Shown piece by piece: positions 10,015 through 64,000 of a stretch of 64,000 nucleotides of DNA; the stretch's first letter is position 1, and every line of letters starts with the position of its first letter. Under the pieces are notes generated by a model. That model was not told the origin of the DNA. It saw only the letters and a list, made by a program, of their open reading frames with translations, and searched no databases. The DNA is from Asparagopsis taxiformis (lineage: Eukaryota > Rhodophyta > Florideophyceae > Bonnemaisoniales > Bonnemaisoniaceae), in contig JALQPE010000619.1 in NCBI GenBank assembly GCA_030407315.1, positions 1-64,000 of the forward strand, given 5' to 3'. A program made the position numbers and the translations under genes.

Positions 10015-10016
10015 CC

Positions 10017-11237: not shown

Positions 11238-11238
11238 G

Positions 11239-20950: not shown

Positions 20951-20969
20951 TCCTGGGGCCGTTGTGGCC

Positions 20970-31680: not shown

Positions 31681-31903
31681 CTTCCGGACATAGGGGTGCT
31701 CGCGGCCTAGCTCGACAGCTGTAATTGTACCTCATTAAATACTGTTCATGACTGCCAACCGTATACAATCTGGACTGTTGGCGTATTCTCCGGTACTTGA
31801 CCTGAACGTTCATCGCAGACCGTTGTGGGTACCGACACTATACAGCAATCTTTTTTGTATCTCGTGCAATCCGATTGTACCATCGCTTCGGGAAAGCTTC
31901 ATT

Positions 31904-34185: not shown

Positions 34186-34262
34186 AATTAGTGCAGTAAA
34201 TGTGACGTTGACTAGAAGGTTTATCATGTAGTACATTATCAATAGAGTGCTGCGATTTAGAT

Positions 34263-36300
34263 TTATTCTTCTTCATTATCATCTGTGAACTGGTAATCAG
34301 TGTTGGTGTAGAAGCGGTTGAGATAGAAACGGTGGTCCGACCAGTGCATTTGTTTCGTAAATGGCTTGACTGGAAAGTTACTTCGTACGATGTGCACGGT
34401 GCCAGATATAGTAGATGCAGGAATGAGGTCAAACCAAGGACCACCTGCACTGTGGGATGCAGTGTCATTGCTGTCAACGGATCCGTTGTCCGGGTCCCAT
34501 GTGGACCACTTTAAACAAATGCACCCAAGTGATTTTTCCACAGCGGTTTTTGGGGCAAAGCAGGTCATATACTGAACGAAAGCGAGTTCTACAGGTTGAA
34601 ACAGGTTTGGAGACTGCAGGCGTACCAGTGCCAGGACGCGCCCTACCCATATGGTTCTGTAGTCATCGGCAGTTCCGGAGATGACGACAAAGGAGTACTG
34701 CGATCTCTTTGCGGGGCCGAATGATGAAGTTGCAAAGACGCGCTGCTGCTTGTGCCTCGACACGTTTGTGGGGCGAAGCATGCCACTGTGCGGGTCAAAG
34801 TCGTCGGCATCTGGGACGTACCCTCCCATGACGTAGGCGGACTTTACCACGGTGACGGAAATGTCCATGTCATGTATTGGAGGGCCTTCTGCCGTTGCGC
34901 GCAGTCTAGCGAGGGTGAGGAACGCTTGTGCAGCTGTGTCACCGAGTTGCTGGAATAGCGTTATGGTGCCAGACGGGAACGAGGAGTTGTGCAGAGGCAA
35001 AAGAGTGGCAGGATCGCTCCTGAGCGCTCTCTTGGCGTGCAGAGCGTGTATCATCGAGGGAGCGGGGCTGGTGTGGCGCGGTGGATTCAAGTTGAGTGGC
35101 GGGGATGTAGCATCGGTGGCAGGGATGTGTGGTGGTAGTGCTGTTGCGAGTGCATGACAGCTCTTTGGCCTCTGGAAATTCGCAGCAATAATTGGCTAGG
35201 ATGGGAAAGCATTGGCGGGCAGTTGCAGTGGAGTCTGTGCAGGGGAACCCGGAAGAGAACGCGGTGGATAGGGACGAAAACACTTTTTCGAGTGCTTTAT
35301 GAAGAATATCAATTTTGCGAGCGCGACTAGCAGAACTAGAGGTTGTCGGCATTTCATCACCGAACAAGGCGTTGGACGAAGGGTTCACAATGTACGGAAG
35401 ATACCCGACGATGGTGAGGCCGGTACGGATGCAGTGGCGACGGAGGGGGGCGGAGAAGTTGAGCAGTGTGACGTGTATGGGGTATGCGACGATTGCGGAG
35501 CTCTTGAGGCTTGTGCTGCTCTTGTCGGAGTACACTTGGAGGAGGCCGGCAAAGGAGGAAGGTGTGGGATCAGTTTCCTCTGCCCATACGACCTGTGGAT
35601 CTTCCGAGAGCTGCACGCGCTGTCTAGTAACCTGGTGCAGCGTTTTTGCGAATTCTGTGTGTAGGGGATGAGAAAATATTGCGGTGCCGTCTGGGGCGGT
35701 CTGTGGGGAGGGGTGGAACAGAGTATTTTGGTCGTTAGCCAGTGCTAACTGCCTGCGGAGCATGTCGACTGGGTCGCGGAGGTACAGCTGTGCCGAGTAC
35801 TTACCAGTTTTGTCTGGAATGATGTGGCTCTTGTAACCTTCGGTGCGGAAATGTGTTTCGACCATGGAAGCGGTAACGTGGCGACATTCTTCTACGGTGC
35901 GAACGGCGCTGTTGAACTTTTCTAGGGAGAATGCGGGGTCTTGTAGGATGGTGATGACTTCGCTCACGCGGCCAGCGCCGGCCTTGTACTCGAGGGTTGT
36001 GAGACTGGCGGCGAGGGATTGCACGAGGAGGTCTGCGCGGGAGGGGGTTGAGGTTGGTGGCAGTGGAGCGTCACAGGGTGAGTCGCTGGAGGAAGCACGA
36101 CCAGATTCTGGGTCTGGGGAGCTGGGTTGCGGGGAATCATGGTCGCCGTTTCGAGCAGGCCCATGGGTGACGGCAGGGACACGAGCGTTGTTGAAATGTT
36201 GGGGAGAGGGGTTGAAACGGTAGCGACACGTTCGCTCATGCAGCGCGAGCGCATAGGCATCTACGCAGTAGTAGAAGCACCCTTCATACTTGCATTCCAT
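34263..36300 (-). pseudogene. gene D: Plavaka-like transposase remnant
   Basis: The N-terminus (from 36300) has a zinc finger, C-x4-C-x12-H-x4-C, typical of Plavaka transposases. Then come V-Y-S-D-K-S-S-T (first acidic catalytic position), A-Y-P-I-H-V-T-L-L-N, a paired-Arg segment and V-G-Y-L-P. A C-E-F-P-E-A-K block and C-H-R-C pair follow, where the family usually has an Asp-Pro-Glu block and C-x2-C. The frame shifts near 35100. The remaining frame (35090-34263) carries the family-like tail ending F-Y-L-N-R-F. Total coding is under 680 residues against roughly 900-1100 expected, and the region with the final catalytic Glu appears deleted. The assignment is from memory of family patterns. 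Confidence 0.6.
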
Positions 36301-37970
36301 GTCGAGTTTTGACGGAAAGGGGAGGATTGCGAGCTGAACAGGGGAGACTGTGCCGTCCAGATGCGACCAATTTTATTTTTGTGGTGCTTCCGAGACTTGG
36401 AATGTAACGTGTTCGTTCGTAGTTTTGTGGGTAGTAGTTTTGTGCACACTCCAGCTGACATCCCAACGGTGGAATTTAACCGAGAGTTCAATCATTTCCA
36501 ACTGTTACATCACATTGCGTGCTGGCAACGTGTGCATGGAAGGACGAACGACCACCCTGGGAGATGAATTTTCAATTAATTCATTTGTAATAATAAACTT
36601 TTTTATTTCCGAACTTCGTGGAATCTGAATGTGCTTTACAGCGGATATGCCACGGATCATGTAAGGAAAGCAAATGGATTCTCATATATATGATTATATG
36701 TTTATATTCGTTGTTCTCGATCCGGATCTCATTGTTCGGGGATTCAGAGACCATGGCTTGGGCCATACTCAATCTCACTGCCGGCGATGATTTCGAGTAT
36801 GCACAGCAAGACTTAAGCGGACGCTGAAAGCTGTCCGGTCGACGCCGCAGGCTCCACTCCCCCTCATCACCGACTGAGATTCTTTGACCGCCTTTGCTTT
36901 GTACGTGTGCGAATCTTGATCAAGATTCGCGCACGTACCTTCGTTCCATCCTCTACCCTCGAGGGTATGCATTGAGGTAAGCGTGGGTTTTGAGTTTGAC
37001 TATTTCCGTTGATGCGATATTTTTCATTGGAAGCCTGTTGACTCATGGTGTGTATTGAGCGGAGGATGGAAGAGAGGTACGTGAAGTTTTGAAAGTGTGC
37101 TGCGAGGGAAGGTTGGTTTTGAGTCTGACTGTTGTAGTTGATTCCGATGTTGTGTAGATGGTGCAGGAATGTTGATGACAGAAGGTAAGTTTCACAGAGC
37201 ACCAAGACTTGTTTTGCGAAGATATGGACTGCTGACTTTGCTTATTCATTGCAAGGTTTTTGGATCATGGTTTGTATTTTGTGTAGGATGGATGATTCAC
37301 TCATCCTCTCGGAGAGGTAAGTAAGGGAGTTTCTAGGATATCTGTCGTGGTAAGCGTTGCTTTTGAATCTGACTGTTGGGGTTGATGTTTTGTATGTGAT
37401 GCAGGAGTGGTGAAACAGGAACGGCAGGACTCCAGGAGAGTGAAGAAGGGATCTAGGAAGATGGGGAATGAAGCTGTGAGGTGTTTCTGGTATGTGTATA
37501 TTTTGGGGCATACGATAGAAGTGAGAGTGGGTTTCAAGTGGTGTAAGATTTTGCTGACCATGTTCGTGTTTGATGTCTTGATGATTTAATGGGCTGGGGT
37601 GGTGTCCAGGAAAGCGGGATGGAATTGGGAAGGAGCGGATTTTTTGTAATCAAGGTCGTGAGGGTTCTTGAAGTATGTGCGGATGGTAGTGCATGGCGTT
37701 CGGATGGTAGGGAGAACGCGATAGTGAGGGAGATGGGTGATCGACGATATGCTGACAGGTATTTCGTATTCTGGCTGGATACGTATTTCCTATTCTAACC
37801 GGGTATTTATTTCCTATTCTGACCAGATATGTATTTCCTATTCTAGAGAGACGTATTGTATACGAGCAGTTTCGTAAATGAGAGAATAAAATACGGTCCG
37901 ATATGGGCCCTGAATTTACCATCCGCTGTAATTTCTTCCCTCCCGGTTTTCGCTGATATATTGTATACTG
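36301..37970. other. non-coding region between gene D and the right TIR
   Basis: No gene recognised. Degenerate units with GGTAAG...TTTTGA(G/A)T(C/T)TGACT recur near 36975, 37110 and 37350. Four short tandem units of the type GTATTTCCTATTCT lie at 37755-37846. Confidence 0.5.
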
Positions 37971-38100
37971 GATGTCGGGTCCTAGTATTCCGCCAAACGT
38001 ACTAGAGAAAGTGGATGTCGGGTCCTAGTATTCCGCCATATGTACTAGAGAAAGTGGATGTCGGGTCCTAGTATTCCGCCATATGTACTAGAGAAAGTGG
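37971..38100. repeat. three tandem 42-43-bp subterminal repeats
   Basis: Units start at 37971, 38014 and 38056, each beginning GGATGTCGGGTCCTAGTATT and ending CTAGAGAAAGT. They lead into GGACGTCC motifs, so they are subterminal repeats of the right end. Confidence 0.85.
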
Positions 38101-38178
38101 ACGTCCGCATCCAAAAAATTTTTATTTTTTTGGACGCGGACGTTCATTTGTTCTAGTAAATCTCGGGGCCGACTAGGA

Positions 38179-38228
38179 CCCGTACTAGAGAGACTGGACG
38201 TCCGCGTCCACTTCCGAAAACACAGACG
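38179..38228 (-). repeat. right terminal inverted repeat, copy 1
   Basis: The reverse complement starts CGTCTGTGTTTTCGGAAGTG, matching the left ends at 19013 and 50570. Confidence 0.75.
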
Positions 38229-39112
38229 GAAGAAAGAAGGACGATTTGAGGAGCTCCAGTTTCACAGTCTTTCTGGAGTTGTTGAAGAACTTTGTGAGTG
38301 CACGCAGCGCGGAAGTAGCGATTAGAACTGGTGCAGTGTCGGCGGGAGCGAGACCGGAATTTCTGAAAGTGGGGGACGAGAGTGAGGGAGCTGGAATGGA
38401 TTCCATGTCGGAGTCGGTAGATAGTCTTTTCCGCTTTGAAGGGGACACGAAGAGGTTGTCTTCGTCGGTAGGCATCGCGAGAGCAAATGCTTCGCGAAGA
38501 GCTTGAGTTGGGAGGCGCACCCAGGCGGGCTTGTTCAGAGGCACAACAGTCGCGTTTCGAAGTGGATAGCTGCGGAGTTCTGTCGACATTTTAAGATCAT
38601 CTTCTTCTCCAGGGTCTGCTAGTCCTGCCTTGCGCATGGTTGAATCCTTCCACCTAACGATATGGTCATTGGCCATCGACAAGAAAGCAGAGCCGACGAT
38701 GGACCGCTGAAGGTAGACGTGTTTCTTCCCGACAGGGCTGGTGATGAGGGACCGCTTGGACTGTGTGGTGTCTGAAGGGGCGGAAGAGAATTGGGAGAAG
38801 GACAACGCGGCGAGGAGCAGAGCTGGACATGAATTGGAAGGTTGAGAAGGGTTTGCAGAGGAGTTTTCGAACGGAGTGCCAGTCCTCGCCAATTCCTTTA
38901 TGGTGCAGTGAGCTACAAAGCGGGAGACGGTGGCTTTGTTGGTGAAAATGCTGTTCACGACCTGGCAAGCAATGTGCATGTCGGGACCGCGGTCCCGGCA
39001 TGAAACGCCACGCGTGTTGGTACCCTCTAGAATGGAAGCGAGATAGCGCAAAGCGGCCAATTCATCATGGATAGGAGCGAGAAACCGTTGAAGAAGTGCG
39101 GAGTACGTCTCT
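38229..39112 (-). pseudogene. unknown ORF truncated at both ends by transposon termini
   Basis: An uninterrupted frame runs from about 39110 down to 38229 (roughly 290 codons). It is cut upstream by the CACTA terminus at 39113, and its last residues (to 38185) come from the large element's TIR. No start codon is needed, since the N-terminus is missing. It has a basic S-P-S-K-R-K-R patch (possible nuclear signal), Ser/Pro-rich stretches and helical segments. I recognise no family. It is likely an internal piece of a larger gene, host or mobile, caught between two insertions. Confidence 0.5.
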
Positions 39113-44964: not shown

Positions 44965-45064
44965 AAACCATGGTAAACCAACTTCTCTGTAAGCATCTGA
45001 GGGGGACTGATGTTTCTCACTCGGGAAGAAGAAGGAGACGATTTCGGACCCCGCGAAAAAGGCT

Positions 45065-50569: not shown

Positions 50570-50620
50570 CGTCTGTGTTCTCGGAAATGGACGCGGACGT
50601 CCACAACCTCTAGTACACCT
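50570..50620 (+). repeat. left terminal inverted repeat, copy 2
   Basis: CGTCTGTGTTCTCGGAAATG, with one noticed difference from copy 1 in the first 40 bp (GGACGCGG versus GGACGCAG). Confidence 0.8.
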
Positions 50621-50879
50621 AGTATTACTAGGCGGACGTCCATGTTCTCCAGTATTTTTGGATGTCCGCCTAGAACCGGACGTCCATGCGGTCTAGTACG
50701 TCTAGTATTACTAGGGCGACATTCATTGTTTCTAGTACCACGGATGTCCCCCTCGGGATGGACTTCCGCCATGTCTATGTCCACCTAGGACGGGCGCCGG
50801 TTCAGAAATTCAAAAATTTCGACCCCAGAAATTTCTGCCGCCGTGCTCGACATGGATGTCCGCATCCATCACGGCGACC

Positions 50880-52190
50880 ACTCTATTTTTCCTTGTCGGT
50901 CGACTCCAATTTCGTCTTTAATTTTTTCATCCTCTCGCTCACACCCCCTTCCTGTTGGTGCTCACCTCCCCCGTACTGTACCTCAAACACCCCCAATACC
51001 ACTCTAGCACGCATTTTCAGCTATACCTATCCCCGCTTCCACGGTGCACACCTCCATTCCATACCTACTTTTCTGCTCTACCGTACAGATTTCGTATAAC
51101 CAGTCCTCATACTACCTCAGAATAGGGCAAAACACCCCCTATCTCCTCGACCATGCTCTCCCCCATCACCTTTGAAACGTATTGTTCTTCAGTACCCTCT
51201 CTCCTCTACCCTCAACCCCTCTCCTTCGCCCTCTACACAAACTTCCCCTGCAGCTTACTCTTCCAAAACCTCTCACTCCCCATCCCGTACCCGACCTGCT
51301 CCACCCCTCCCTCCCTCAGCTGCTCCATGCCCCCACGCCATCCGCATCTTCGATACCGTATACACCACCACCACCGGCCCACGCTCCCGCACTGCGGGGT
51401 GGCTCCCCCGCCGTATCCCCAGAAACCTCCCCGCTCTGAAACACATATCAACCCCCCACTTCGCACCCTTCCTCCCACTCCCCTCCCTCCCCAAATACAA
51501 TAAACCCCTTCTTCTCCATCACATCCCCACTCACCACAGCCAGAACAGACGCCACCCCCTCCCCTTCTTTCTCCTCACTTTCCTAAAAACCCCTCCTCTC
51601 GGCGCCTTCAACCGCACCCTCCTACGGTCCCACCTAAACACCTCCTCCGCCCTCACTACCCCAACACCCCGCAGCGTCTCCCCAATCCCCATAATATGCT
51701 TGTCGGCACTCCTCTCCGAATCACAATCCATTCTAAACCCGCACTCCGTACATTTCCACCTCCCCCTGTACCATCCCAAGATTCCATCCCCCCACAGAAC
51801 ACATCCTCATACCACAGAAGAATTTTCTTCCTCTCATACCTCATCCTTAAAACCTCCATCAGCTCCATGTAAATTTCGATGAAAATATTTTCTCTACTAT
51901 GCAATCTCAAACATGTATGAGCCTATGCCTTTCCGCTTTGTCAACCCTGAATATTGGTACTCATGTATTCATAAAATAGGGCCACCCACATCCCTATCCC
52001 GTTCTGCAAGCTTTACAAACCACTAGACGCATACTCCACAACTATACAACAAACACTACTCGCTATTTCAGACGACGCGGTACACAAGTAGCGTAGTGTC
52101 AACCTTCCGTGACGCCTTCCCTGATGCGTACAAGTGGGAAACAAGTCTAGACGTATATCAGAAGTGAGTGCGGGAATTTTCGGCACAGGA
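50880..52190 (-). other. C-rich subterminal region, copy 2
   Basis: Collinear with 19320-20640. The minus-strand zinc-ribbon-like frame (W-K-C-T-E-C-G-F) is present but also interrupted. It differs by two codons in the core and by an insertion of about 20 bp near 51388. Confidence 0.3.
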
Positions 52191-52194
52191 GATG

Positions 52195-52292
52195 CTGGGC
52201 CACCAAATTGATTTTTCGGAAATTTTAGAATTTCTGGGCTGGCCAGCAATGCAATCGAGCTGGACATCCACCGGACGTCCATTTCAGGTTGG
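52195..52292 (+). repeat. headless palindrome-pair repeat (tail only), copy 2
   Basis: Carries the AATTTTAGAATTTCTGGGC and GGACGTCC tail but neither palindrome. Confidence 0.8.
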
Positions 52293-52530
52293 TCGCGAGA
52301 GGGTGGGGCGGGACCATGATGAAACAAGGACCAAGACCTTTCCCTGACGTGTTGAGCCTGAAATCGACCCTTCGTGAGACGCGATTTTGGCTTACAGTTG
52401 GTGCTATAGAAGCCAGTGATAGCCCCGATCGGGGCGGCAGCCGGTTCCGGCTTACAGTTGGTGCTTACAGACGCCAGTGATAGCCCCCGATCGGGGCCGG
52501 CGGTCGGTTCCTGGGGCCGTTGTGGCCAAA

Positions 52531-52742
52531 TTAGACACCCTGATTTGAATTAAAATTTGGGCTATTCTCAAAAACATGCACATGTGAACATGTTTTTGAG
52601 ATGGGGGTGTGCCGTACGGCACAATCGACCGCCCAAATCGTTGATTTTTGCAAGATTTTTTGTGCCCGAAATTTTAGAATTTCTGGGCTGGCCAGCAGTG
52701 CATCTGAGCTGGACATCCACCGGACGTCCATTTCAGGTTGGT
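52531..52742 (+). repeat. palindrome-pair repeat R, extra unit in copy 2
   Basis: Palindromes at 52567-52600 and 52609-52622. This unit has no equivalent in copy 1 and accounts for the roughly 500-bp length difference. Confidence 0.9.
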
Positions 52743-53029
52743 CGTGTGCTGCCTACATCCACGCATTGCAGAAACTAAGCCAGCGGGTTCACTACTAATA
52801 CAAAGTACACGGAATATGAGTAACGTGATAGGTGAGTAGTGTTTGTGTTGAGGGAGTAAGGCGGGACCATGATGAAACAGGGAAAAAGATGTCACCCAAG
52901 CATAACTTAGGCTTCAAGCCTGGAATCGAACCTTCGTAAGACGCGATTTTGGCTTACAGTTAGTGCTTACAGAAGCCAGTGATGGCCCCGCTCGGGGCGG
53001 CGGCCGGTTCCTGGGGCCGTTGTGGCCAA

Positions 53030-53244
53030 ATTAGACACCCTGATTTGAATTAAAATTTGGGCTATTCTCAAAAACATGCACATGTGAACATGTTTTTGAG
53101 ATGGGGGTGTGCCGTACGGCACAATCGACCGCCCAAATCGATGTTTTTTGCAATATTTTTTTCTGCCCTGAATTGTAGAGTTTCTGGGCTGGCCAGCAAT
53201 GCATCTGAGCTGGACATCCACCGGACGTCCATTTCAGGTTGATC
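53030..53244 (+). repeat. palindrome-pair repeat R, downstream of gene A (copy 2)
   Basis: Palindromes at 53067-53100 and 53109-53122. Confidence 0.9.
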
Positions 53245-53515
53245 GTGTATCGTGCACGTCCACCCATTACCGGAAGCAAGTAGGCGATGAAGCACGTACA
53301 AACCCAATTGTTCTGCTATTTCTACCATAGACCATCGAGTCTAGAGATGTGAGGGAATCGTCCTGGAAATCATGCTCCAACCCACGAGGGAATGGACAAT
53401 CTAGTTTGAAAGCATGGAACGGAAGTACATTATACTAGGTTCATAGATTGGAAGTGATAAAGGAGATGATTATATTCTCGATAATTGTTTACCAAAGTAG
53501 TAGTTGTTAAGCTAT

Positions 53516-56500
53516 CTAGCCGTCGGAAAATTGTTCTTCCTCTTCGTCCTCACTATATTCAGGATCTCCCGGCAGAATAGGCGTTATCGGCAACTGTGGA
53601 GTTGAATAGCTCAAGATGAATTTTTGACCCGGTGTGAGGGTTCTCTTCTTGGGAGCTTCTGTCGTCTTCATCCGCATGATTCCGAGTTGCCCTGTCTTCG
53701 GCCTACGATCTTTCTTGACCGGGATGGGAACAACTGTCTTGTGGCGAACATTGACAGGTGCCGGTTGACTTTGCCTGGCAGACCGGCGCGGAGCATTGGC
53801 GATTACTTCTTCTTCGAATCCCAACCGCCTGATGAAACCAAACGAAACATTGTCGGGAATCGGATACGACGCATTCCTGAAATACGTGTGATACCTCGTT
53901 GTCGTGTGTGACACAACTCTGTCGACATGCCCTGCCCCGGCATGTTGTACATGGCCGTGACCGATGAAGACTGAACGTGGCGGAACGATTACCTTCTTCA
54001 GCTTCATCGTCTTGGCGTACATATCTAATTCCAGCGCTTTGGAAAAGACGTACTTGTGGGACCCTGGACACACCCAGATAGGGAATGGGTCATCTCCGTT
54101 GGCAATAACAAAGTAACCCGGAAGTTGATCTTTGCGGTCGCGAGGAGGAACAGGGAAATCATTGTGTGGGACCTGCCGAGGACACCCCTTTCCCGTTATC
54201 AAAAACCGTCCCCCAGATGCCGGCATGACAAGTTTTTCTCCCGGTAAACCGCACTCCTCCAGCCCTATCAGCCGGACAAGGATTCCCAACCACACATCCA
54301 GCAGGGCTCGCCGCGTCACAAACTTGAACCGGTCGATATGCGTCTCATCGTTCTCGGCATAGTCAACCAGGCAGTGGCGCGTAGACGTGAAGCGAGCCCT
54401 CCCCTCATTCCGGTTCTTCTCATCTGTTTCATCGTCCCCAGTATTGACAATGGGACTCCACAGCTGCCGGTTCCCAGGGTCCTTGTGCACCTCCTCCCCC
54501 TCCCACGTTCCCAAAAAGTACCGAAACAATTCCTGGTTAGGAATTTCTTCCATGAGACCCAAGTCAAATGGGAACTTGTCCGACGCATCGAGGTAGCTTA
54601 CATCCGCGAAATTGTGCATCACCGTATACCCTCGCTCGTTGATTTCCGTTCGGCAATTGTGGAAGTACGCCATACCAGTGCCGGCCTCATACGAATCCTT
54701 CCAGCTTGTAGACATTCGCGCAACCTGGGCGAAGTCCAGCCTCGAGGGTAGAAACGTCGATGTAGGCTCACACATCGCCTTGGCAGCCATCTTCCACGCT
54801 GCGAAAAACATCGGATAGATGGTGTCGATCTCGAAAACAAGATGACGAGCCCGATGTTGTTCCGGAATATGCAGCCCCTCAAACACAGGGTCCATCGCCA
54901 CTTGTTTCAAATACCTCACCTCTCTGCCCTCCTCATCGATTTCCACACTCTCCAATAACAACCTGAGCTCAATCGGGGGCAGACAGCCAACCCTCACCGA
55001 TGCGATGACGTCCGCGGGACGCTGCGCCAGATGATGCCCTTCAGCTCGGTCTTTGACTTCGAAATCGTCGGGAAGAGATGGCATCCGGTCGTCGAACAGG
55101 AGGTCGTGTTCAGAAGGAGAGTCACGAACGATGTAACCGTCTTCATCGACTTCCACTCCTTCCGGAACAGTGAATGTAATTGTCACTTCGCGGACCCCCT
55201 TGCTTTCGACTTGGCCCACGTCTGCACCCTGTTTGTCTTCCTCGTCCGAAGCGGTATGGACAGATTCTTGGTTGGAGGGAGTCGCACCAGCACGTTGGTT
55301 ATCTTGGGGGACAATCTCAACGGCAGAATCGGGGGAACGGGCGGAGTCTTCGTCAACCTCATCACCGGAAGCAGTGGCTTGTTGTTGATCGGTGGGTTTA
55401 TCAACAACGGCCTGCTCTTCTTCCCCGGCGGATTGTTGTACCACAACCGGCTCTTCTTCCTCGAGGCGTGTGCTCCCCGTCGAGCGAAGTCGCTGTGAAC
55501 GGCGGCGGATGCCATGCGAAGCAGGCTCATGTTCGACATTCCGCTGCTTCTTGTGAGTGAGTCTCACATTGGCAGCAGAAGGGCGGCGTTTGCGTCGAGC
55601 CTTAGTCTTCTTCTTCAATGTCGGATTGAAAAACTCTTTCAAGTTCGTTTCCAAATCCTGTAAACGCGTGGTTCTCCGTCGCATTCGAACCTCACTGCTC
55701 CGGTCGTCCCCTCTATACATTGCAATGGCATTGGTGAGATGCCATTGCAACTCCTTCGGCTGCTTAACCGACCCAATTGCCATCTCTGTGCTCAGAAATG
55801 ACTTGCGCATAATACTCTTTGGGCGCCCATACGCAGCGTACAGAGAATTTGCTATTGCAGTCACGCGACGGACGTATGTATAGAAGTCGTTCACGTCAAA
55901 GCGTCCATCCGGACGTCCACCATGAGCAGGGTTCAAGTACTCCGAAAGACCACGCAAGACGAAGACAAAGTTTTCTTCCAGCAACTCGCGCACTATCTTG
56001 TGGTCCAGGTGCGTTATCCCAATCTCGTTGCGGCGCTCGGAATTGTTCAGCTCACGCAACACTTCGTCGAGAACAGGATGCTTCAGCGTTGCTATAGCCA
56101 AACGCGTCCACCGCCGGGCCGTGTTCGTTGAATTCATCATCCCCATGAACTGCGCCTCGAACAATGTTCGGATGACATCAGACTCACGCAAGTCGCCAGC
56201 GTTTTCCACGTTATTTGCAACAGCAATCGTACGGATGAACTGCTGGATGGACGACAAGATTCGAACCAGGGAGCGCTCCGTCAGTTGCGTCCCAGTCGTA
56301 TGGTTCGACTCTGCACTCTTGTGGATGATCTCATGAGGCTGAAGATCACTGTCGTCCTTGCGGCGAAGGTAGTACACATCCAGAGGCTGAGTAACCCAGC
56401 GCAAGCGGTTTGCGTCCTGTGGCAGCTTGGTTCTGTGCATACGGGTGAGGCGCGTGAAGTCATCGGCAATGCTATGCATAGCATTGAGACGATGCAGTCC

Positions 56501-57472
56501 GTCGATCACGGTCACGTTCGCATTGGCATGGAATTTGCCATTCTGGAACAGACGCGTGTCGGCGGGCAGATGCGTGTTCTGCGACCTCAGCACCGTCACA
56601 GTGATACGCGAAGAGCTCACATACCCCACAGCCAACATATTGTTGCGCAGGTCCTCCACGTGGTCTTCTTTCACATCCCGAAGGGTCACGGCCGGTTCCA
56701 CTAGCTGCCTCACCAGCACAGTCGCTCCTTCTCCGACGTAATCCGACGTCACAAACTTGGGCACCGTAATTTGCGTCCCCTGCTGCTCACGAATGCTTTC
56801 CGCCACCTCCGGTTCGTCGTCCACTTCGGTTACGTCCTGCGTAGTAGCTTCGGTGACGTTGGAGCGAGCAGGGTGCTTCGTGCCTCCACTGGAGGGTCTT
56901 GCAGAGCGAGCAGGGCGCTTCGTGCCTCCCGAAACCGGGACGGAGCGTGCTGGATGCTTCGTACCCCCCGAACCAGTGATTTCGCCTGCCGGACCGGTAC
57001 TGGGCATCCGTCCCGAGCTGGCCTGGTTCGTCGCTGCGTTGAAGTTTGACGCTGCAGCAGGGGTACGAATGTCGCTAGGGCCATCCTCCGCAGCGGGGCG
57101 CATCATCCGAGTATCCCAAGGGTAAAACGCCGCGGCGTATGCTCCACCCATCGTCTCCGGCGGTCCCTCGGCGCCATCAAACATGTACGGGAACGGGAGG
57201 TCCTTGAACTTGTCCTTAGTCGCAATGTTGCGCACGACGATATAGTCGGCCTCGTCGGTTTCCGGCAGCTTGTGGTTGTGCAGCGTGCGCGGAAGGCCAA
57301 CATCGCCACCAGCAGTGCTCACCGAAGCCGTCCCAATATGCACAGCCGCACCGTCCACGTCCGCAAACAAATTGACATCGACGCCGCGCTTGAGTCCGCG
57401 CGACTCCGCTGACGCGCTCACTTGATCGCCGCAAACCGTTGAAAACAAACTGCTGAAATGCGTATCCGCCAT
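53516..57472 (-). CDS. gene A: ParB-like domain - 2OG-Fe(II) dioxygenase fusion protein
   Basis: I start it at ATG 57472 (context AACCATGG), giving 1318 residues; the frame extends 40 codons upstream only through a GTG. Residues about 160-220 hold three Gly-Gly-Thr-Lys-(H/R)-Pro-Ala-Arg-Ser repeats. A ParB/Srx-like module lies at about 235-345, with the signature V-I-D-G-L-H-R-L-N-A-M (Asp324, Arg328). A helical region, a basic patch with K-K-K-T-K-A-R-R-K-R-R, and an acidic/Gln-rich linker follow. The C-terminal double-stranded-helix oxygenase has His1103-x-Asp1105 and a distal His in G-H-G-H-V-Q-H (His1177), with Arg1193 as candidate 2-oxoglutarate ligand. The overall look is PhyH-like rather than clearly TET/JBP-like. 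It is likely nuclear; the substrate is unknown, and DNA or chromatin is inferred from the ParB-like domain and neighbour B. Confidence 0.8.
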   Translation of the reverse strand: MADTHFSSLFSTVCGDQVSASAESRGLKRGVDVNLFADVDGAAVHIGTASVSTAGGDVGLPRTLHNHKLPETDEADYIVVRNIATKDKFKDLPFPYMFDGAEGPPETMGGAYAAAFYPWDTRMMRPAAEDGPSDIRTPAAASNFNAATNQASSGRMPSTGPAGEITGSGGTKHPARSVPVSGGTKRPARSARPSSGGTKHPARSNVTEATTQDVTEVDDEPEVAESIREQQGTQITVPKFVTSDYVGEGATVLVRQLVEPAVTLRDVKEDHVEDLRNNMLAVGYVSSSRITVTVLRSQNTHLPADTRLFQNGKFHANANVTVIDGLHRLNAMHSIADDFTRLTRMHRTKLPQDANRLRWVTQPLDVYYLRRKDDSDLQPHEIIHKSAESNHTTGTQLTERSLVRILSSIQQFIRTIAVANNVENAGDLRESDVIRTLFEAQFMGMMNSTNTARRWTRLAIATLKHPVLDEVLRELNNSERRNEIGITHLDHKIVRELLEENFVFVLRGLSEYLNPAHGGRPDGRFDVNDFYTYVRRVTAIANSLYAAYGRPKSIMRKSFLSTEMAIGSVKQPKELQWHLTNAIAMYRGDDRSSEVRMRRRTTRLQDLETNLKEFFNPTLKKKTKARRKRRPSAANVRLTHKKQRNVEHEPASHGIRRRSQRLRSTGSTRLEEEEPVVVQQSAGEEEQAVVDKPTDQQQATASGDEVDEDSARSPDSAVEIVPQDNQRAGATPSNQESVHTASDEEDKQGADVGQVESKGVREVTITFTVPEGVEVDEDGYIVRDSPSEHDLLFDDRMPSLPDDFEVKDRAEGHHLAQRPADVIASVRVGCLPPIELRLLLESVEIDEEGREVRYLKQVAMDPVFEGLHIPEQHRARHLVFEIDTIYPMFFAAWKMAAKAMCEPTSTFLPSRLDFAQVARMSTSWKDSYEAGTGMAYFHNCRTEINERGYTVMHNFADVSYLDASDKFPFDLGLMEEIPNQELFRYFLGTWEGEEVHKDPGNRQLWSPIVNTGDDETDEKNRNEGRARFTSTRHCLVDYAENDETHIDRFKFVTRRALLDVWLGILVRLIGLEECGLPGEKLVMPASGGRFLITGKGCPRQVPHNDFPVPPRDRKDQLPGYFVIANGDDPFPIWVCPGSHKYVFSKALELDMYAKTMKLKKVIVPPRSVFIGHGHVQHAGAGHVDRVVSHTTTRYHTYFRNASYPIPDNVSFGFIRRLGFEEEVIANAPRRSARQSQPAPVNVRHKTVVPIPVKKDRRPKTGQLGIMRMKTTEAPKKRTLTPGQKFILSYSTPQLPITPILPGDPEYSEDEEEEQFSDG

Positions 57473-57819
57473 GGTTGTTGAGTTGGAAAGTAAAAGAGAT
57501 GGTTGACGTTGACGTATTCGAGTGATGTGGATGGTAGGTTTCACGTTGCTTGAAGAATGGTCGTGAACGCCAATCGCTGGAAATAATAACACAATACAAC
57601 CGAAATTTTGTTAGGTACACACCTATCGTGACCGCTGGAATGCAAGACAGGCAATCGAGATGTGAGTGTCCGTTCGGAACGGGCCCGAGTCGGGCTCTCG
57701 AAACCTGACGAGGTGGCGTGAAGCAGGCAGTGTCCTTGATGTGTAATGTGTTAAAATTACAGCTGTCAAGCTAGGCGGCTTTTGGGGCGGCTGCGAGCAC
57801 CCCTTTATCCGGGGAACAC

Positions 57820-58022
57820 CCTGATTTGAGTTAAAATTTGGGCTATTCTCAAAAACATGCACATGTGAACATGTTTTTGAGATGGGGGTGTGCCGTACGG
57901 CACAATCGACCCGCCCAAATCGTTGATTTTTGCAAGATTTTTTGTGCCCGAAATTTTAGAATTTCTGGGCTGGCCAGCAGTGCAATCGAGCTGGACATCC
58001 ACCGGACGTCCATTTCAGGTTG
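57820..58022 (+). repeat. palindrome-pair repeat R, upstream of gene A (copy 2)
   Basis: Palindromes at 57848-57881 and 57890-57903. The left arm is full here, whereas copy 1 lost one A. Confidence 0.9.
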
Positions 58023-58312
58023 ATCGTGTGCTGCCTACATCCACGCATTGCAGTAACTAAGCAGGCGGGATCACTACTAATATAAAGTGCACGGAATATG
58101 AGTAACGTGATGGGTGAGTAGTGTTTGTGTTGAGGGAGTAAGGCGGGACCATTATGAAACACGGAAGAAGATGCGTACCTAGCATAACTTAGGCTTGAAG
58201 CCTGGAATCGACCCATCTTTCGGCGCCATTTAGCCTTACAGTTAGTGCTTACAGAAGCCAGTGATGACCCCGCTCGGGGCGGCGGCTCCGGTCCTGGGGC
58301 CGTTGTGGCCAA

Positions 58313-58500
58313 ATTAGACACCCTGATTTGAATTAAAATTTGGGCTATTCTCAAAAACATGCACATGTGAACATGTTTTTGAGATGGGGGTGTGCCGTAC
58401 GGCACTTTCGACCGCCTAAATCGATAAAATTTTGCAATTTTTTTCCTGCCCGAAATTCTACAAGTTCTGGGCTGGCCAGTAATGCATTAGCTATCTCCTC
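58313..58500 (+). repeat. palindrome-pair repeat R, mid inter-gene region (copy 2)
   Basis: Palindromes at 58350-58383 and 58392-58405; the tail diverges as in copy 1. Confidence 0.9.
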
Positions 58501-58977
58501 TAAACCGATTCTAACAAGCAGAAAGAATCCTCTCCTTCATGACGATGCTCTCCATCGTCTTTTCGAAGCCATTTCCGTACGAAAAATAATCGAAAAACAT
58601 ATTTGACTTTAACCTAACAGCTATCGCGAGCACCGTACTCAGCTATATTTCCTCTGTAATTTCCTTCCTCCAACCAATCAATAGCCGCTTGGTCACAGGC
58701 TTAAAAGCCTTCCACTATCTGTCCTATCCATCGAAGACCCTCGGAGGGTTCGATCCAGGCCTTGATCACCCATGATGGGTGTGCAACCCGAGAAAATGAA
58801 AATGGAACATATTGCGACAGGGACGAGATATCATTCCATGAAAGAGAACTTCTCTTTCGTTTACTTTTTTCTAACAAGATTCTAAACGTCTACAAACCCT
58901 ATGTCGTCCGTCCGTTTTCATCCCGGAGAGATGTGGATGTGAGGTAAGACGCAGTGGTGATGTTGTGTTGATTCCCA

Positions 58978-59220
58978 CAGACGGAGGTGGAGGAGGTGGC
59001 TACGGAGGAAGCCTGGAGAACTTGTCCGGTACTGACATCTCACATGTTGCCATTAACGGAGGTGGTGGAGGAGGCTATGGTGCAAGCCTGGAGAACATGT
59101 GACTCACATCTCGCAGATGTCAGTACCCATGGATGAGAAGAAAAGCATGTTGAGGTGCGGTTCGGATATTCGATCCATTAACGGAGGTGGTGGAGGAGGC
59201 TATGGTGGAAGCCTGGAGAA
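58978..59220 (+). repeat. GGAGGTGGAGG minisatellite, copy 2
   Basis: Irregular units with GGAGGTGGTGGAGGAGGCTA followed by an AAGCCTGGAGAA block. The arrangement differs from 26942-27240, so it mutates faster than its surroundings. Confidence 0.75.
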
Positions 59221-59511
59221 GAATAGAGTAGTCCTATACCCATGGATCACAAGAAGACGTTGTTGGGCTCCTTTTCGAAGCCCATTCGTCTCTTGAATAA
59301 ATTTAGCACCCAAATCATATACGATTGCCGAGTTGACACCCCGTATGTCTCGTTGGTAGAAATAGCAGGGGTTCCACCACTCAGCTGGCGGGAAGTAGTT
59401 ACTGATTATATGAGATATGGCTTAGCTCCCGCCAAAACCGATAGCTCTGGGCTCAGGTTCTCCAAATGTGGTTATACGAATGTGTTCTGACAATGCTAGA
59501 AGACGAATATC

Positions 59512-59705
59512 TGCATCCTGATTTGAATTAAAATTTGGGCTATTCTCAAAAACATGCACATGTGAACATGTTTTTGAGATGGGGGTGTGCCGTACGGCAC
59601 AATCGACCGCCCAAATCGATGTTTTTTTGCAATATTTTTGCTGCCCGAAATTGTAGAATTTCTGGTCTGGCCAGCAATGCATCTGAGCTGGACATCCCCA
59701 TGTCC
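59512..59705 (+). repeat. palindrome-pair repeat R, upstream of gene B (copy 2)
   Basis: Palindromes at 59545-59578 and 59587-59600. Confidence 0.9.
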
Positions 59706-60047
59706 AGTGGCCGTCCGGATGTCGCTCACCTGGTAAGCGTGATGCACCTGTGACAACCTATGTGACTGCAGTCACAGCCGCCATGGCGGCCGTGCAGTAC
59801 AACACTCAAAGACAGGGAATCACAATCTTTTTAAAATTTTTCTCTACCACGTATCCGTCACAACTTATTACCTACACCGGTTACGGGTTTCAAGACCTTT
59901 CCAGTGCTGTGTACCCGTATACTCTGTTCCGTTCGATATCAACCAGTGTTCCTCACGAAAGAGTGCAAACGTCACGAGATACGTCGTCAAATTTGACTGT
60001 CTCGCCGAGCGGTCGCCATCCTGTACCGAATTTCCACTCATTCCATT

Positions 60048-63000
60048 ATGACGAATAAGCGCAGGCGCAACAGCAATCCGATCGTTGACGACGCAACCGT
60101 GCCAATTCTGCGCGAACCCGCTAGCCCTTGGGAGGATTCTAGTGACATGGGTACACGTCGAAACGTAGGTCGCGCCGCCCGCGAAACTACTCTCGCTGGC
60201 AAAGACTTCCTCCGCCTCTTGCTGGATTTGTTCGCCCACTCAAGTTTCGCAGACTTGACGGACAAGCCGGGAGGTTTCACATACGCGGACCTTGGCGCTT
60301 GGGTTGCGCAGGGCACGGAAGAACAATTTCTGGCGCTGCAAGGTCGACTCAGCATGGCCTTCAGCGGTCGTTCGAAGAATGCTGGAGTCGAGGCGGATGT
60401 TGCCGAAATCGTCATGGCAGAGATGAACGTTGAGCGAGCCAAGCAGATTGTTCGTCTGGCATTACCGATTGCCGAGTTTTCAAGACAGGATGAGCGTATC
60501 GGGCAATGGGTTGAGCACTGCATCCTTTCTGGGATCGTGCCGCAGACCTTCCTTATTGGATGTAACATGCTTCCTTCGCCACTACAGGCGCCGCAGCGCG
60601 GGGAACCAAGCGCCTTCGTTCTTGCTCCACCGGAAACGTTCGAGGTATTGATGTATTTCCAAGCGTTGTCTATCATCCGAAATCACAACAAGAACCTGCC
60701 GCGTCGCCGAATAGGCGACGCGGCCGAAGAGGGGAACGAAGCCGCACGCGTCCCAGCCCATCGGAAAAGCACTAATCGAGCTTGTTACGTGGTTCAAGTT
60801 TTATACCATGCTTGGACCGATGTGGCCTTCGCCGCAAAGTTTTCCAGCTTCGAAGAGTTGATGGCGCCGTACATCATTTTCGACAGCAGTGAGCATTGGT
60901 TTGACGTGCTCGATGAAGGTCTATTCGCACCGATGGAGCAGAAGCTAGATCTCTACCACGACAAAGCTCCCCTATCTCATCCTGATGGATATGGTGGAAA
61001 AGTAGAGACAAGAACCAGTGCGCAGCACAGTGCATTTAGGGACCTTGTGAGGAAGTTCTTCGACCGGTTGCAGTTTCTTATCGTCAACCCGGACCTGTAC
61101 ACCTGGCCGGAGTCCGACCGCTGGGGGGCGCTGGAAATATACTTGTCAAGCGGAAATCCGGACAAGCTGCCAGCGTACTTTGACACCCTCGACGAAGACG
61201 TTATGGCTGTCCTCCGCCCGGCACCACAAGCCGCGGACGCAGAAAAGGTCCCCAAGCCGGTTGATGACACTCCCACTCGTCGCAACACAGGAGGGAGAGG
61301 TTTGGTTCCGTCGACAAGACACACAACCAGGCTTCAACTTGGACCTGGGAGGACCAGTCTTACTGCCCAAGGGCCGTCTCCCCCGTCACCGTCACCCCAT
61401 GCGACAGAAGAGCAGGAAAGTGAAGGGCAGGCTCTCGCAAAGGACTTTCTTTCGAAAATGAGTCAGTATTGCCGGGTGTACGACGTCCCTTTCGAAGATT
61501 TGGTCAGTGCCGACGAGAGCCGAGAACACGTGCCCATCACGGGCAACGTTCAGCTCATTCTGACTGATCCGCCCTACAATGTTCGTCGTAAGAGGAACGA
61601 TTCCAACTCTTCGTACGACAGGCTAACTGCAGAAGATATGCAGGCTAGCATCGAAGTGTTTGACGAGCTGTTGCGCCCCGGTGGCCACGGCATCGTGTTC
61701 TGCTCCGTTTTGCAGTTCTACGAATGGTTCCATTACTTGGAAACGTACAAAGGACCGCAGTCAGAAGGCCCAACCGATGCTGCTGCCAGTGATGACGGGT
61801 CGGATGAAGAAGAGGTTACGTCCATGAATTCGGACTCCGAAGCATCGCAGCACAGTGGCGAAGAAAGTGCGGATGAGGAGGAGGAGGAGGACGAGGAGGA
61901 GGAGGACGTCGTTCGGAATTCAGTTTTCTTCGTTGACGAGGTACCTCTGTTGTTTGTCCGACTACCTGGGCACCTCTATCAAATGCCGGGGCGGAAGAGG
62001 TACCAACGCATGAACATGGCAGAGGTCGCTATCCACTTCTGGAAGCGAGGTGTTCCGTTCAAGACTGGAAGCGAGATGGTGGCCTATAGGAACCACGGAT
62101 ACATGGACGGCACGTACCCGGCGTGGTGCAACGTCACCATCAATATGCCCGCCATCGATTCGAATGAGATGGTGTGGCGAACAAGGAGCACAACCGGTGC
62201 TACGGTCAGAGTTCGTGCAGAGCAGAAGAGCGTCGCTCTCATGATGGAGTTGATCAGCCAGCATTCACAGCCTGGTGATATTGTTGTCGATCCATTCTCT
62301 GGCACTTTCGCAACGGGAAAAGCAGCTATGAGCTTGCCTGAGCACCGTGTTTTCGTCGGCAGTGACATGGACAAATTGTGTGTGGCACGATCGCTTCCAA
62401 AGCTGTGTGCAGTCATGTCACGTGTAATTCTTTCAAACAACACTGACATGAGGGTCACGACAGAAGCGAAACAGAGTGCTGAGAAGTTCTTGGCGTCCCC
62501 CTCTGTCACGATGCGTACGCAGAGGGAACGCAGGATCATCGAACCCCCACCTGGCCTTCCCCTGTACCAGAGGTTCCCGAAATATATTCGGCAGTACCTC
62601 TGGCAGCTGTGCCCAGAGTCGATTGCGTCGCACGAGCACATGGAAAAACCGGTACATTATTGGCCACCTTCCCTGCGCCGCTGGTTGCAAACTGAAAACC
62701 CTCGCGTGATGCGGGCACACGATTGTGTTGCGAAAAAATTGAGCGTTCGACCATCGCTGATTAAGCATCCAAATGCAGGAAGAGGGCTCTTCGCTGAACA
62801 GACATTTAATGTTGGCGACGAAGTATGTGCATACTACGGAACTGTTGTGTACTCTGATATGAGCAAGGAGTCGATGAGGTTCGCGTACGGAGAGGGTCAC
62901 ATGGCGATAACGAAGGAAACATTCTTGATGTATGCCATCAAGCTGTATGCAACAGCGGAGGACGACGAAAACATCGAGCATCCAATTTGGATTGTTCCGG

Positions 63001-63251
63001 CTCCGTTCTGTTCGGCGCAGTTCATCAACGACCCGCGGTATTTGCGAGGTGAGGACACTCCGGCGGAAGACACCAGGCGGATGGCCAACGTCGAGTTTGT
63101 CGAGAACTACAGCAGCGGTTCGACGGGGAAGAAGCTCAAGGCGAAGGACCTAGAAAATCCGAAGATCATTGTAGTACGTGCAATCCGCGATATCCGTCCG
63201 GGGCAGGAGCTCTACGTTCATTATGGGACAGCGTTTAGAGCATGGAATTAG
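60048..63251 (+). CDS. gene B: DNA amino-methyltransferase (beta-class) - SET domain fusion
   Basis: ATG 60048 opens 1067 residues. Residues 1-430 have no family I recognise. The methyltransferase has motif IV T-D-P-P-Y (Asp507-Tyr510), an acidic insert (about 586-625), then motif I V-D-P-F-S-G-T (Asp748-Thr753). Motif IV before motif I is the beta-class order of N6-adenine/N4-cytosine DNA methyltransferases. The SET domain occupies about 900-1065: A-G-R-G-L-F-A (910-916), F-I-N-D-P-R (992-997, where most SET proteins have N-H-x), N-V-E-F, and the terminal P-G-Q-E-L-Y-V-H-Y-G (1051-1060). It should therefore combine DNA and protein-lysine methylation, presumably in the nucleus. SET activity is uncertain because of the N-D substitution. 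It is divergent from gene A. Confidence 0.88.
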   Translation: MTNKRRRNSNPIVDDATVPILREPASPWEDSSDMGTRRNVGRAARETTLAGKDFLRLLLDLFAHSSFADLTDKPGGFTYADLGAWVAQGTEEQFLALQGRLSMAFSGRSKNAGVEADVAEIVMAEMNVERAKQIVRLALPIAEFSRQDERIGQWVEHCILSGIVPQTFLIGCNMLPSPLQAPQRGEPSAFVLAPPETFEVLMYFQALSIIRNHNKNLPRRRIGDAAEEGNEAARVPAHRKSTNRACYVVQVLYHAWTDVAFAAKFSSFEELMAPYIIFDSSEHWFDVLDEGLFAPMEQKLDLYHDKAPLSHPDGYGGKVETRTSAQHSAFRDLVRKFFDRLQFLIVNPDLYTWPESDRWGALEIYLSSGNPDKLPAYFDTLDEDVMAVLRPAPQAADAEKVPKPVDDTPTRRNTGGRGLVPSTRHTTRLQLGPGRTSLTAQGPSPPSPSPHATEEQESEGQALAKDFLSKMSQYCRVYDVPFEDLVSADESREHVPITGNVQLILTDPPYNVRRKRNDSNSSYDRLTAEDMQASIEVFDELLRPGGHGIVFCSVLQFYEWFHYLETYKGPQSEGPTDAAASDDGSDEEEVTSMNSDSEASQHSGEESADEEEEEDEEEEDVVRNSVFFVDEVPLLFVRLPGHLYQMPGRKRYQRMNMAEVAIHFWKRGVPFKTGSEMVAYRNHGYMDGTYPAWCNVTINMPAIDSNEMVWRTRSTTGATVRVRAEQKSVALMMELISQHSQPGDIVVDPFSGTFATGKAAMSLPEHRVFVGSDMDKLCVARSLPKLCAVMSRVILSNNTDMRVTTEAKQSAEKFLASPSVTMRTQRERRIIEPPPGLPLYQRFPKYIRQYLWQLCPESIASHEHMEKPVHYWPPSLRRWLQTENPRVMRAHDCVAKKLSVRPSLIKHPNAGRGLFAEQTFNVGDEVCAYYGTVVYSDMSKESMRFAYGEGHMAITKETFLMYAIKLYATAEDDENIEHPIWIVPAPFCSAQFINDPRYLRGEDTPAEDTRRMANVEFVENYSSGSTGKKLKAKDLENPKIIVVRAIRDIRPGQELYVHYGTAFRAWN

Positions 63252-63482
63252 GGTCACGAAAGATGTTTTCATTTCGACTACAAATAAAGCTACGTTCCAG
63301 AGTTGAAGTATATCATATAATGCAGCATGTCCAGCCACCATTAGTCCAGGGTGAAACCTATTGAGCAGTACTCGCCTGTCAAAAACCAATCGTTCACACT
63401 CTAGGTGCACTTCGTCCGAGCAGTGAACCTGACTGCTTGGATGCTGTTATGCGTGCAGATGCAAAATACACGACCAAGTTGA
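63252..63482 (+). terminator. gene B 3' flank with AATAAA (copy 2)
   Basis: AATAAA at 63283-63288, 32 bp after the stop: candidate polyadenylation signal, conserved in copy 1. Confidence 0.5.
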
Positions 63483-63683
63483 AATGGACGCCCGGTGGAT
63501 GTCCAGCTCAGTTGCATTGCTGTCCGGCCCAGAAATTCTACAATTCAGGGCAGAAAAAAATATTGCAAAAAACATCGATTTGGGCGGTCGAAAGTGCCGT
63601 ACGGCACACCCCCATCTCAAAAACATGTTCACATGTGCATGTTTTTGAGAATAGCCCAAATTTTAATTCAAATCAGGACGTCT
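63483..63683 (-). repeat. palindrome-pair repeat R, inverted, between genes B and C (copy 2)
   Basis: GTGCCGTACGGCAC at 63594-63607 and the 34-bp palindrome at 63616-63649, again 8 bp apart. Confidence 0.9.
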
Positions 63684-63910
63684 TCCGGACATAGGGGTGC
63701 TCGCGGCCTAGCTCTACAGCTGTAATTGTACCTCATTAAATACTGTTGATGACTGCCTACCGTATACAATCTGGGCTGTTGGCGTATTCTCCGGTACTTG
63801 ACCTGACCTGAACGTTCATCGCAGACCGTTGTGGTTACCGACACTATACAGCAATCTTTTTTGTATCTCGTGCAACTCAATCGTTCCATCGCTTCCGGGA
63901 AAGCTTCATT

Positions 63911-64000
63911 ATGCCGCCGCGTATTGCGAAGAAAGCTCCAAAGCCTCCGGGCCTCCAGAAAACCCGGTCAGCAGCTGCTGTATCGAGTGCCCGACAATCC
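63911..64000 (+). CDS. gene C, copy 2: coiled-coil protein, 5' end only
   Basis: ATG 63911 begins the same Lys/Pro/Ser-rich N-terminus as copy 1. It has one more G near 63948, which keeps the frame aligned with the long downstream frame seen in copy 1. All 30 visible codons are open. The rest lies beyond the window, so I cannot tell whether this copy is intact. Confidence 0.5.
   Translation, partial: MPPRIAKKAPKPPGLQKTRSAAAVSSARQS

What the first reader, a model, noticed from the sequence alone, without database searches (positions are those of the whole stretch)
53516..63251. A transposon-borne epigenetic module: divergent ParB-like/dioxygenase and DNA-MTase/SET genes
Two long genes (1318 and 1067 codons), divergently arranged inside a TIR-bounded repeat, pair a beta-class DNA methyltransferase fused to a SET domain with a 2OG-Fe(II) dioxygenase fused to a ParB-like domain. 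Seen: the motifs and arrangement. Known: these families methylate DNA or protein lysines, oxidise substrates including modified bases, and bind or cut DNA. Inferred: a self-contained writer plus eraser/modifier system that marks the element's own DNA or chromatin, to evade silencing or guide transposition. I know of no described element with this exact pair.
Basis: partly seen in the sequence, partly recalled or inferred. Interest (0 to 1): 0.92.

Follow-up and report, generated by a model that had tools for sequence, protein, structure and literature searches.

The report
Giant Plavaka transposon with epigenetic enzymes
A roughly 19,000-base jumping gene in a eukaryotic genome carries a DNA-methylating/histone-methylating fusion enzyme and a second protein that looks like an oxygen-using eraser, so it may influence how the cell marks and silences it.

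Summary
Both long ORFs exist. One is firmly identified: a beta-class amino-DNA-methyltransferase (DPPY) fused to a SET domain (Pfam 3e-15, 1e-6). The other shows motifs of a 2OG-Fe(II) dioxygenase and, more weakly, of ParB, but no profile, PDB or structure test supported either.

The 'TIR-bounded module' is wrong in detail. The 'TIRs' are two members of an internal repeat family. True outer TIRs lie at 19012 and 38229 (copy 1, 19.2 kb); copy 2 starts at 50570 and runs off the window. Copy 1 also encodes a Plavaka transposase (1.5e-22).

New: an 85-bp double-palindromic core, 81/85 positions invariant in 11 copies (adjacent 64 bp about 13% diverged), brackets both cargo genes at about 340-450 bp.

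Transposons with TET/JBP dioxygenases (some Plavaka), SET domains or adenine methyltransferases are known separately; my ten paper searches showed none joining a dioxygenase-like gene to a DNA-MTase-SET fusion. Most likely role: anti-silencing self-marking, inferred only. Host unidentified; the whole-genome tool did not complete.

The parts
50570..64000 (.). Copy 2 of the element, left TIR to window end (right part lies outside the window; 64000 corresponds to 31992 in copy 1)
   Evidence: BLAST identity 95-98% to 19013-31992; left edge sharp against unlike flanks
19012..38229 (.). Copy 1, complete between outer TIRs, 19.2 kb; its cargo ORFs are interrupted relative to copy 2
   Evidence: outer inverted ends by pattern and BLAST; broken ORFs
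50570..50616 (+). Left terminal inverted repeat, copy 2 ((C)GTCTGTGTTCTCGGAAATGGACGC...)
   Evidence: 0 matches in 100 shuffles
19012..19059 (+). Left TIR, copy 1
   Evidence: 85% to 38182-38229 reversed, E 4e-9
38182..38229 (-). Right TIR, copy 1, with palindromic GGACGTCC-type repeats in and beside it
53516..57472 (-). Cargo gene 1, 1318 aa from ATG (numbering below is that of the 1358-aa ORF from GTG): putative 2OG-Fe(II) dioxygenase in the C-terminal part (H1143xD1145, H1217, R1233), possible ParB-like region about aa 300-450
   Evidence: ORF; motif positions; no profile support
60048..63251 (+). Cargo gene 2, 1067 aa: N-terminus of unknown nature (1-440, no Pfam match), beta-class amino-DNA-methyltransferase (501-776), SET domain (911-1060)
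   Evidence: Pfam; PDB relatives; 99% identical protein P0001 from ENA
52539..52623 (+). 85-bp core repeat A' (extra copy, no counterpart in copy 1)
53039..53123 (+).
57820..57904 (+). 85-bp core repeat B, about 350 bp upstream of cargo gene 1
58322..58406 (+). 85-bp core repeat C
59517..59601 (+). 85-bp core repeat D, about 450 bp upstream of cargo gene 2
63593..63677 (-).
34263..36300 (-). Plavaka transposase, copy 1, in two overlapping ORFs (34939-36300 and 34263-35090); N-terminus zinc-finger-like (CX4C...HX3C, by eye)
   Evidence: PF18759 E 1.5e-22 for 34939-36300, above gathering score; no match for 34263-35090; frames
32644..34185 (+). Fourth ORF of the element (copy 1), 513 aa, no known family
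21562..25544 (-). Copy 1 version of cargo gene 1, split into two ORFs, with a local rearrangement
28063..31305 (+). Copy 1 version of cargo gene 2, split by three single-base indels and one in-frame stop

Best explanation
This is a giant (about 19 kb) Plavaka-type cut-and-paste DNA transposon of an unidentified eukaryote that has captured a two-gene epigenetic cargo. Shown: outer TIRs, a Plavaka transposase ORF (copy 1), and a DNA-MTase-SET fusion gene inside the element in both copies. Inferred: the fusion protein methylates adenine N6 (DPPY) and a lysine on histones at the element's own chromatin; the divergent partner is a 2OG-Fe(II) dioxygenase that oxidises a repressive methyl mark on DNA or protein. 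Together they keep the element's genes in a permissive state despite host silencing. The 85-bp palindromic cores that bracket both genes are likely docking, boundary or control sites for an element-encoded DNA-binding protein (the transposase, or the N-terminal half of cargo protein 1).
For: Outer TIRs and Plavaka transposase PF18759 1.5e-22 in copy 1; cargo at the same place in both window copies. MTase and SET domains above Pfam cut-offs with DPPY and DPFSG present. Intact ORFs in copy 2; P0001 is identical at 1052 of 1067 positions. 85-bp core 81/85 invariant over 11 copies, adjacent 64 bp about 13% diverged; its signature motifs absent from the rest of the window. Precedent: TET-bearing Plavaka (PMC12730594); 6mA overlaps H3K4me3 in most species profiled (PMC12695648, passages).
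Against: No statistical support for the dioxygenase or ParB assignments. The usual SET 'NHS' reads 'FINDP', so SET activity is uncertain. Right end of copy 2 unseen; no target duplication seen for copy 1. Copy 1's transposase is in two frames and its cargo is broken. pN/pS of cargo gene 1 between copies is 0.52 (p 0.011) but 0.61 (p 0.10) once a rearranged stretch is left out. The low divergence of cargo gene 2 (0.22%) includes synonymous sites (3 of 717), so it suggests gene conversion more than selection. In PMC12695648 most Naegleria genes with H3K4me3 lack 6mA, Trichomonas departs from the rule, and inhibiting H3K4me3 did not change 6mA in Acanthamoeba. A comparable pair can silence: in bdelloid rotifers a bacterial-type MTase partners with SETDB1 against transposons (PMC8885841).
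Confidence: 0.55

Rival explanations
1. Self-restraint: the MTase-SET writes repressive, not permissive, marks on the element, limiting its own copy number, and the partner tunes this.
For: In bdelloids a bacterial N4C MTase cooperates with SETDB1 H3K9 methylation to silence transposons (PMC8885841, abstract and passages). The SET part's PDB matches are weak and mixed: KMT5A/SETD8 (best 0.0035), KMT2A/2B, EHMT2, so the lysine target is open.
Against: DPPY is given for N6A enzymes in a passage of that paper (that the rotifer enzyme itself has SPPY is recalled); 6mA mostly marks permissive chromatin in the eukaryotes surveyed in PMC12695648.
Confidence: 0.15
2. Passenger cargo: genes captured by chance, with no role in transposition, now decaying.
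For: Copy 1 cargo is broken; weak selection signal.
Against: Copy 2 and P0001 keep a 1065-1067-aa multidomain ORF intact with catalytic motifs. Three of the breaks in copy 1's cargo gene 2 are single-base indels, which could be assembly errors (not testable here).
Confidence: 0.17
3. One reading: an independent transposon bounded by the 251-bp inverted arms, nested in the Plavaka element.
For: Arms are 90% complementary over 251 bp and enclose both genes.
Against: The same repeat occurs 6 times in copy 2 (as far as seen) and 5 times in copy 1, all but one per copy in direct orientation; one copy lies outside the arms; no transposase match in the ORFs scanned between them; the two copies stay colinear through both arms, apart from a roughly 500-bp duplication at the left arm in copy 2.
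Confidence: 0.08
4. Base-modification pair of restriction-modification or hypermodification type: the ParB-like half is a nuclease or clamp, the MTase protects or primes the element's DNA.
For: ParB-like motif VIDGLHRLNA (by eye; position); palindromic sites bracketing the genes.
Against: ParB profile test failed; no Pfam ParBc match.
Confidence: 0.05

Closest known systems
TET+ Plavaka transposons of Agaricomycetes (Kojima 2025, PMC12730594; abstract, passages and sections 3.2 and 4.2 seen)
   Same: Plavaka transposase plus a cargo dioxygenase gene, thought to counter silencing
   Different: TET+ families there are PlavakaB with termini CATCA..TGATG and 2 or 3 bp TSDs; here (C)GTCTGTG..CACAGAC(G) and no TSD seen. 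The paper says transposons with TET/JBP genes encode no additional protein for further modification; here a DNA-MTase-SET is present. TET/JBP membership of our protein is not established
HarbingerS and MuDR transposons of Phytophthora with SET domains (named in PMC12730594; original reports not seen)
   Same: DNA transposon carrying a SET methyltransferase
   Different: Other transposase superfamilies; whether SET is fused to a DNA methyltransferase there was not checked
DIRS retrotransposons with Dam-like adenine methyltransferase; Symbiodinium and Klebsormidium retrotransposons with DNMTs (PMC5890265, passages seen)
   Same: Mobile element encoding its own DNA methyltransferase, possible self-methylation
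   Different: Retrotransposons; no SET or dioxygenase mentioned in the passages seen
Plavaka giant repeats of Amoebidium (PMC11244446, passages seen)
   Different: The passages name tyrosine recombinases as cargo; MTase-SET or dioxygenase are not mentioned there
Bdelloid N4CMT (PMC8885841, abstract and passages seen)
   Same: Bacterial-type amino-MTase fused to a chromatin domain in a eukaryote
   Different: Host gene, fused to a chromodomain, silences transposons

Membership tests
Plavaka DNA transposon (CMCT clade) | Plavaka transposase domain | tested here: met
   PF18759 1.5e-22, 80.7 bits against cut-off 26.3
Plavaka DNA transposon (CMCT clade) | Terminal inverted repeats enclosing the transposase | tested here: met
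   19012-19059 / 38182-38229
Plavaka DNA transposon (CMCT clade) | Termini TGT..ACA (A) or CATCA..TGATG (B) and 2-3 bp TSD, as reported in PMC12730594 | tested here: inconclusive
   The edge shared by the three visible ends is (C)GTCTGTG..CACAGAC(G), with TGT..ACA three or four bases inside it. One search's script looked only for target duplications of 4 bp or more (none); 2-3 bp ones I compared by eye in its printed flanks at these edges and saw none. One complete copy cannot settle it
Beta-class amino-DNA-methyltransferase | N6_N4_Mtase domain, motif IV DPPY before motif I | tested here: met
SET lysine methyltransferase | SET domain above curated cut-off | tested here: met
   29.6 bits against 22.4
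SET lysine methyltransferase | Catalytic NHxC..N motif (recalled) | tested here: inconclusive
   FINDP...ANVEF in its place, read in the sequence; YG of the last motif kept
2OG-Fe(II) dioxygenase / TET-JBP | Profile match or double-stranded beta-helix fold | tested here: inconclusive
   no match; model unusable; HxD..H..R pattern only
ParB/Srx superfamily | ParB profile match | tested here: not met
   no ParBc among Pfam matches up to E 10; rank 28 of 304 with a narrow 7-sequence phage profile
   arms are 2 of 6 internal repeats in copy 2

The most novel reading that the evidence does not exclude
A eukaryotic transposon that carries a complete, sequence-addressed DNA-and-histone marking circuit: a writer that puts a methyl group on DNA and on a histone with one polypeptide, a dioxygenase that erases or further oxidises a mark, and dedicated 85-bp palindromic address sites bracketing each gene, nucleated much as bacterial ParB is on parS. 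As far as my searches show, it would be the first mobile element with writer, eraser and address in one unit.
Probability: 0.12. Interest if true: 0.92.

Novelty: new variant of a known kind. Interest (0 to 1): 0.62.

Why it matters
Mobile elements are known to pick up single epigenetic enzymes. A DNA transposon with a DNA-methyltransferase fused to a SET domain, next to a probable dioxygenase, would link DNA and histone marks in one protein and would let one test directly whether transposons write their own permissive chromatin. The near-invariant 85-bp sites give a concrete address to test.

Tried and rejected
ParB by profile: 7 phage ParBs (P1, N15, PY54 and four others) gave no support, with the caveat that this profile is narrow. 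Structure: one AlphaFold job each on aa 860-1290 and 254-620, both without homologues and of no use, so no fold search was run. Homologues: 1 hit for the MTase-SET ORF (P0001), none for the whole cargo gene 1 ORF, 1 near-identical fragment (P0002) for its C-terminal part; each search scored only about 8,000 candidates sharing most words, and how many genomes stand behind these clusters is not known. Viral and bacterial collections, scanned by exact peptide patterns: no relative of cargo protein 1 and none of whole cargo protein 2; for the MTase part two viral contigs and one phage record match over a short stretch around motif I, none in bacterial genomes. The 28-base core pattern had no exact match in viral or bacterial contigs. 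No Rfam family at gathering score, no tRNA. The host could not be named.

Searches behind 'combination not in print': (open-licence PMC papers only; most hits seen as listings). The statement that transposons with TET/JBP genes encode no additional modification protein is from section 4.2 of PMC12730594. The earlier work that first linked TET/JBP genes to fungal transposases was not seen.

Mended on re-check: catalytic residue numbers, the zinc-finger spacing, the reach of the TSD test (status of the terminus row changed to inconclusive), and the host guess (dropped).
Full report
Observation. Both ORFs are real: 53516-57592 (-) and 60048-63251 (+). The second carries N6_N4_Mtase (aa 501-776, 3e-15) and SET (911-1060, 9.8e-7), both above curated cut-offs. 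DPPY (507) precedes DPFSG (748), the beta-class order (recalled), and the best solved relatives are adenine-specific enzymes, one named DpnA (9e-10 for the MTase piece) and CcrM (1e-4). DPPY is given for bacterial N6A enzymes in a passage of PMC8885841. The SET part has GRGLF and a terminal ELYVHYG but FINDP where NHS is usual (recalled), so activity is open; its PDB matches are weak, best KMT5A at 0.0035.

Cargo protein 1 is less certain. By eye, aa 1130-1240 of the 1358-aa ORF read like a double-stranded beta-helix dioxygenase (VPHND with H1143 and D1145, PGSH, VQHAGAGH with H1217, then R1233; positions and the sequence), and aa 300-450 like a ParB N-domain (VIDGLHRLNA). No Pfam, PHROG, NCBIfam or PDB search supported either, for the whole ORF or pieces; the best matches of the pieces are to unrelated families at 0.034 or worse. 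tblastn against plasmids and phages gave nothing significant. A profile from 7 phage ParBs ranked the ParB piece 28th of 304 targets, behind its own shuffles, and without P1 the piece was not reported. AlphaFold without homologues failed. I put 'dioxygenase' at about 75% and 'ParB-like' at about 40%, as judgement from motifs.

Element. Self-comparison shows copy 1 (from 19013) and copy 2 (from 50570) colinear at 95-98% BLAST identity up to the window end. The left edge is sharp against unlike flanks. The terminal sequence GTCTGTGTTCTCGGAAATGGACG occurs three times in the window: 19014+, 50571+ and, with 2 mismatches, 38205-; none in 100 shuffles. BLAST gives a 48-bp inverted pair 19012-19059 / 38182-38229. 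Copy 1 is thus 19.2 kb. Between cargo gene 2 and the right TIR lie ORF 32644-34185 (no family) and a Plavaka transposase ORF, PF18759 1.5e-22. The transposase is spread over two frames in copy 1. The script found no target duplication of 4 bp or more for copy 1; I saw none of 2-3 bp by eye at the edges used. The ends are not those of the two Plavaka classes in PMC12730594 at the edge itself, though TGT..ACA of class A lies three or four bases inside. Copy 1 may be rearranged, or the family may be a further Plavaka lineage.

Repeats. The eleven copies share an 85-bp core holding an imperfect palindrome (CTCAAAAACATG..CATGTTTTTGAG) and the palindrome TGTGCCGTACGGCACA, 14 bases of which are in all eleven. 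Within the core 81 of 85 columns are invariant and mean pairwise difference is 1.2%; in the next 64 bp it is 12.7%. Using one copy per position: copy 2, 1.2% against 13.3%; copy 1, 1.4% against 13.0%. The cores lie about 390 bp past the stop of gene 1, 350 bp before its start, 450 bp before the start of gene 2 and 340 bp past its stop (from and the ORF ends); in copy 1 none lies between 31.7 kb and the right TIR. Constraint or local homogenisation could both explain this; the sharp edge of conservation favours constraint. They are not simple promoters, since they stand at both ends of each gene and in mixed orientation to it.

Evolution. Between copies, cargo gene 2 differs at 7 of 3187 aligned sites (3 synonymous, 4 not, one of these a stop), cargo gene 1 at 65 of 4038, and non-coding parts at 2.3-2.9%. 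Synonymous sites of gene 2 are nearly unchanged too (3 of 717), so gene conversion is likely. For gene 1 pN/pS is 0.52 (one-sided binomial p 0.011), falling to 0.61 (p 0.10) when a rearranged stretch is excluded. CpG is not depleted: observed/expected is 0.96-1.10 in the seven 4-kb bins wholly inside the two copies, and 28 of 84 transitions between copies touch a CpG (not compared with an expectation). So there is no plain sign of RIP-like or 5mC-driven decay.

Other copies. P0001 (ENA) is 99% identical over the full MTase-SET protein and stands for 13 member sequences; P0002 (source 'lgn') is a near-identical 367-aa end of cargo protein 1 with 32 members. Whether members are separate genomic copies or repeated assemblies is not known. 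The whole-genome search did not complete (14 tries), so co-occurrence beyond the two window copies is untested.

Known context. Plavaka families with TET/JBP genes were found in Agaricus bisporus and Gymnopus confluens; proteins of the PE type, to which these belong, are so divergent that HHpred gave only E 1.4 to CMD1 (PMC12730594). That our protein also evades profiles fits, but does not prove, such a kinship. SET domains in HarbingerS and MuDR, and adenine methyltransferases in DIRS elements, are in print. 6mA overlaps H3K4me3 in most species profiled in PMC12695648, but Naegleria and Trichomonas depart from this and H3K4me3 inhibitors did not lower 6mA in Acanthamoeba. On this I base the reading that the fusion writes permissive marks; the opposite, silencing reading has its own precedent in rotifers.

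Verdict. A giant Plavaka-type transposon with a confirmed DNA-MTase-SET gene and a probable dioxygenase gene, plus striking bracket repeats: a new variant of a known kind.

Noticed in passing
6005-11878: Young Copia-type element: 623-bp direct repeats 99.8% identical (6005-6627 / 11256-11878) around an RVT_2 ORF.
   Followed up: partly
1539-4033: Gypsy-type pol with RNase H, integrase and a chromodomain match below its cut-off.
   Followed up: partly
19060-20600, 50620-52200, 36300-37900: Both ends of the element have strong GC skew of opposite sign (-0.52 and -0.48 on the left, +0.29 on the right); the ORFs scanned on the left gave no Pfam match.
   Followed up: partly
52535-53204 and 57816-58487: A 670-bp direct repeat (92%) flanks cargo gene 1 like a pair of LTRs; each unit holds two cores 500 bp apart.
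   Followed up: partly
44848-49739: Dense block of tandem and inverted repeats with long palindromes (e.g. TTACAGCAAAGTCATCG/CGATGACTTTGCTGTAA), of unknown nature.
   Followed up: no
41720-42457: ORF with a glycine-transporter domain (PF03458, 4.6e-16), perhaps an exon of a host gene.
   Followed up: no
32644-34185: Fourth element ORF, 513 aa, coiled-coil-like N-terminus by eye, no family found.
   Followed up: partly
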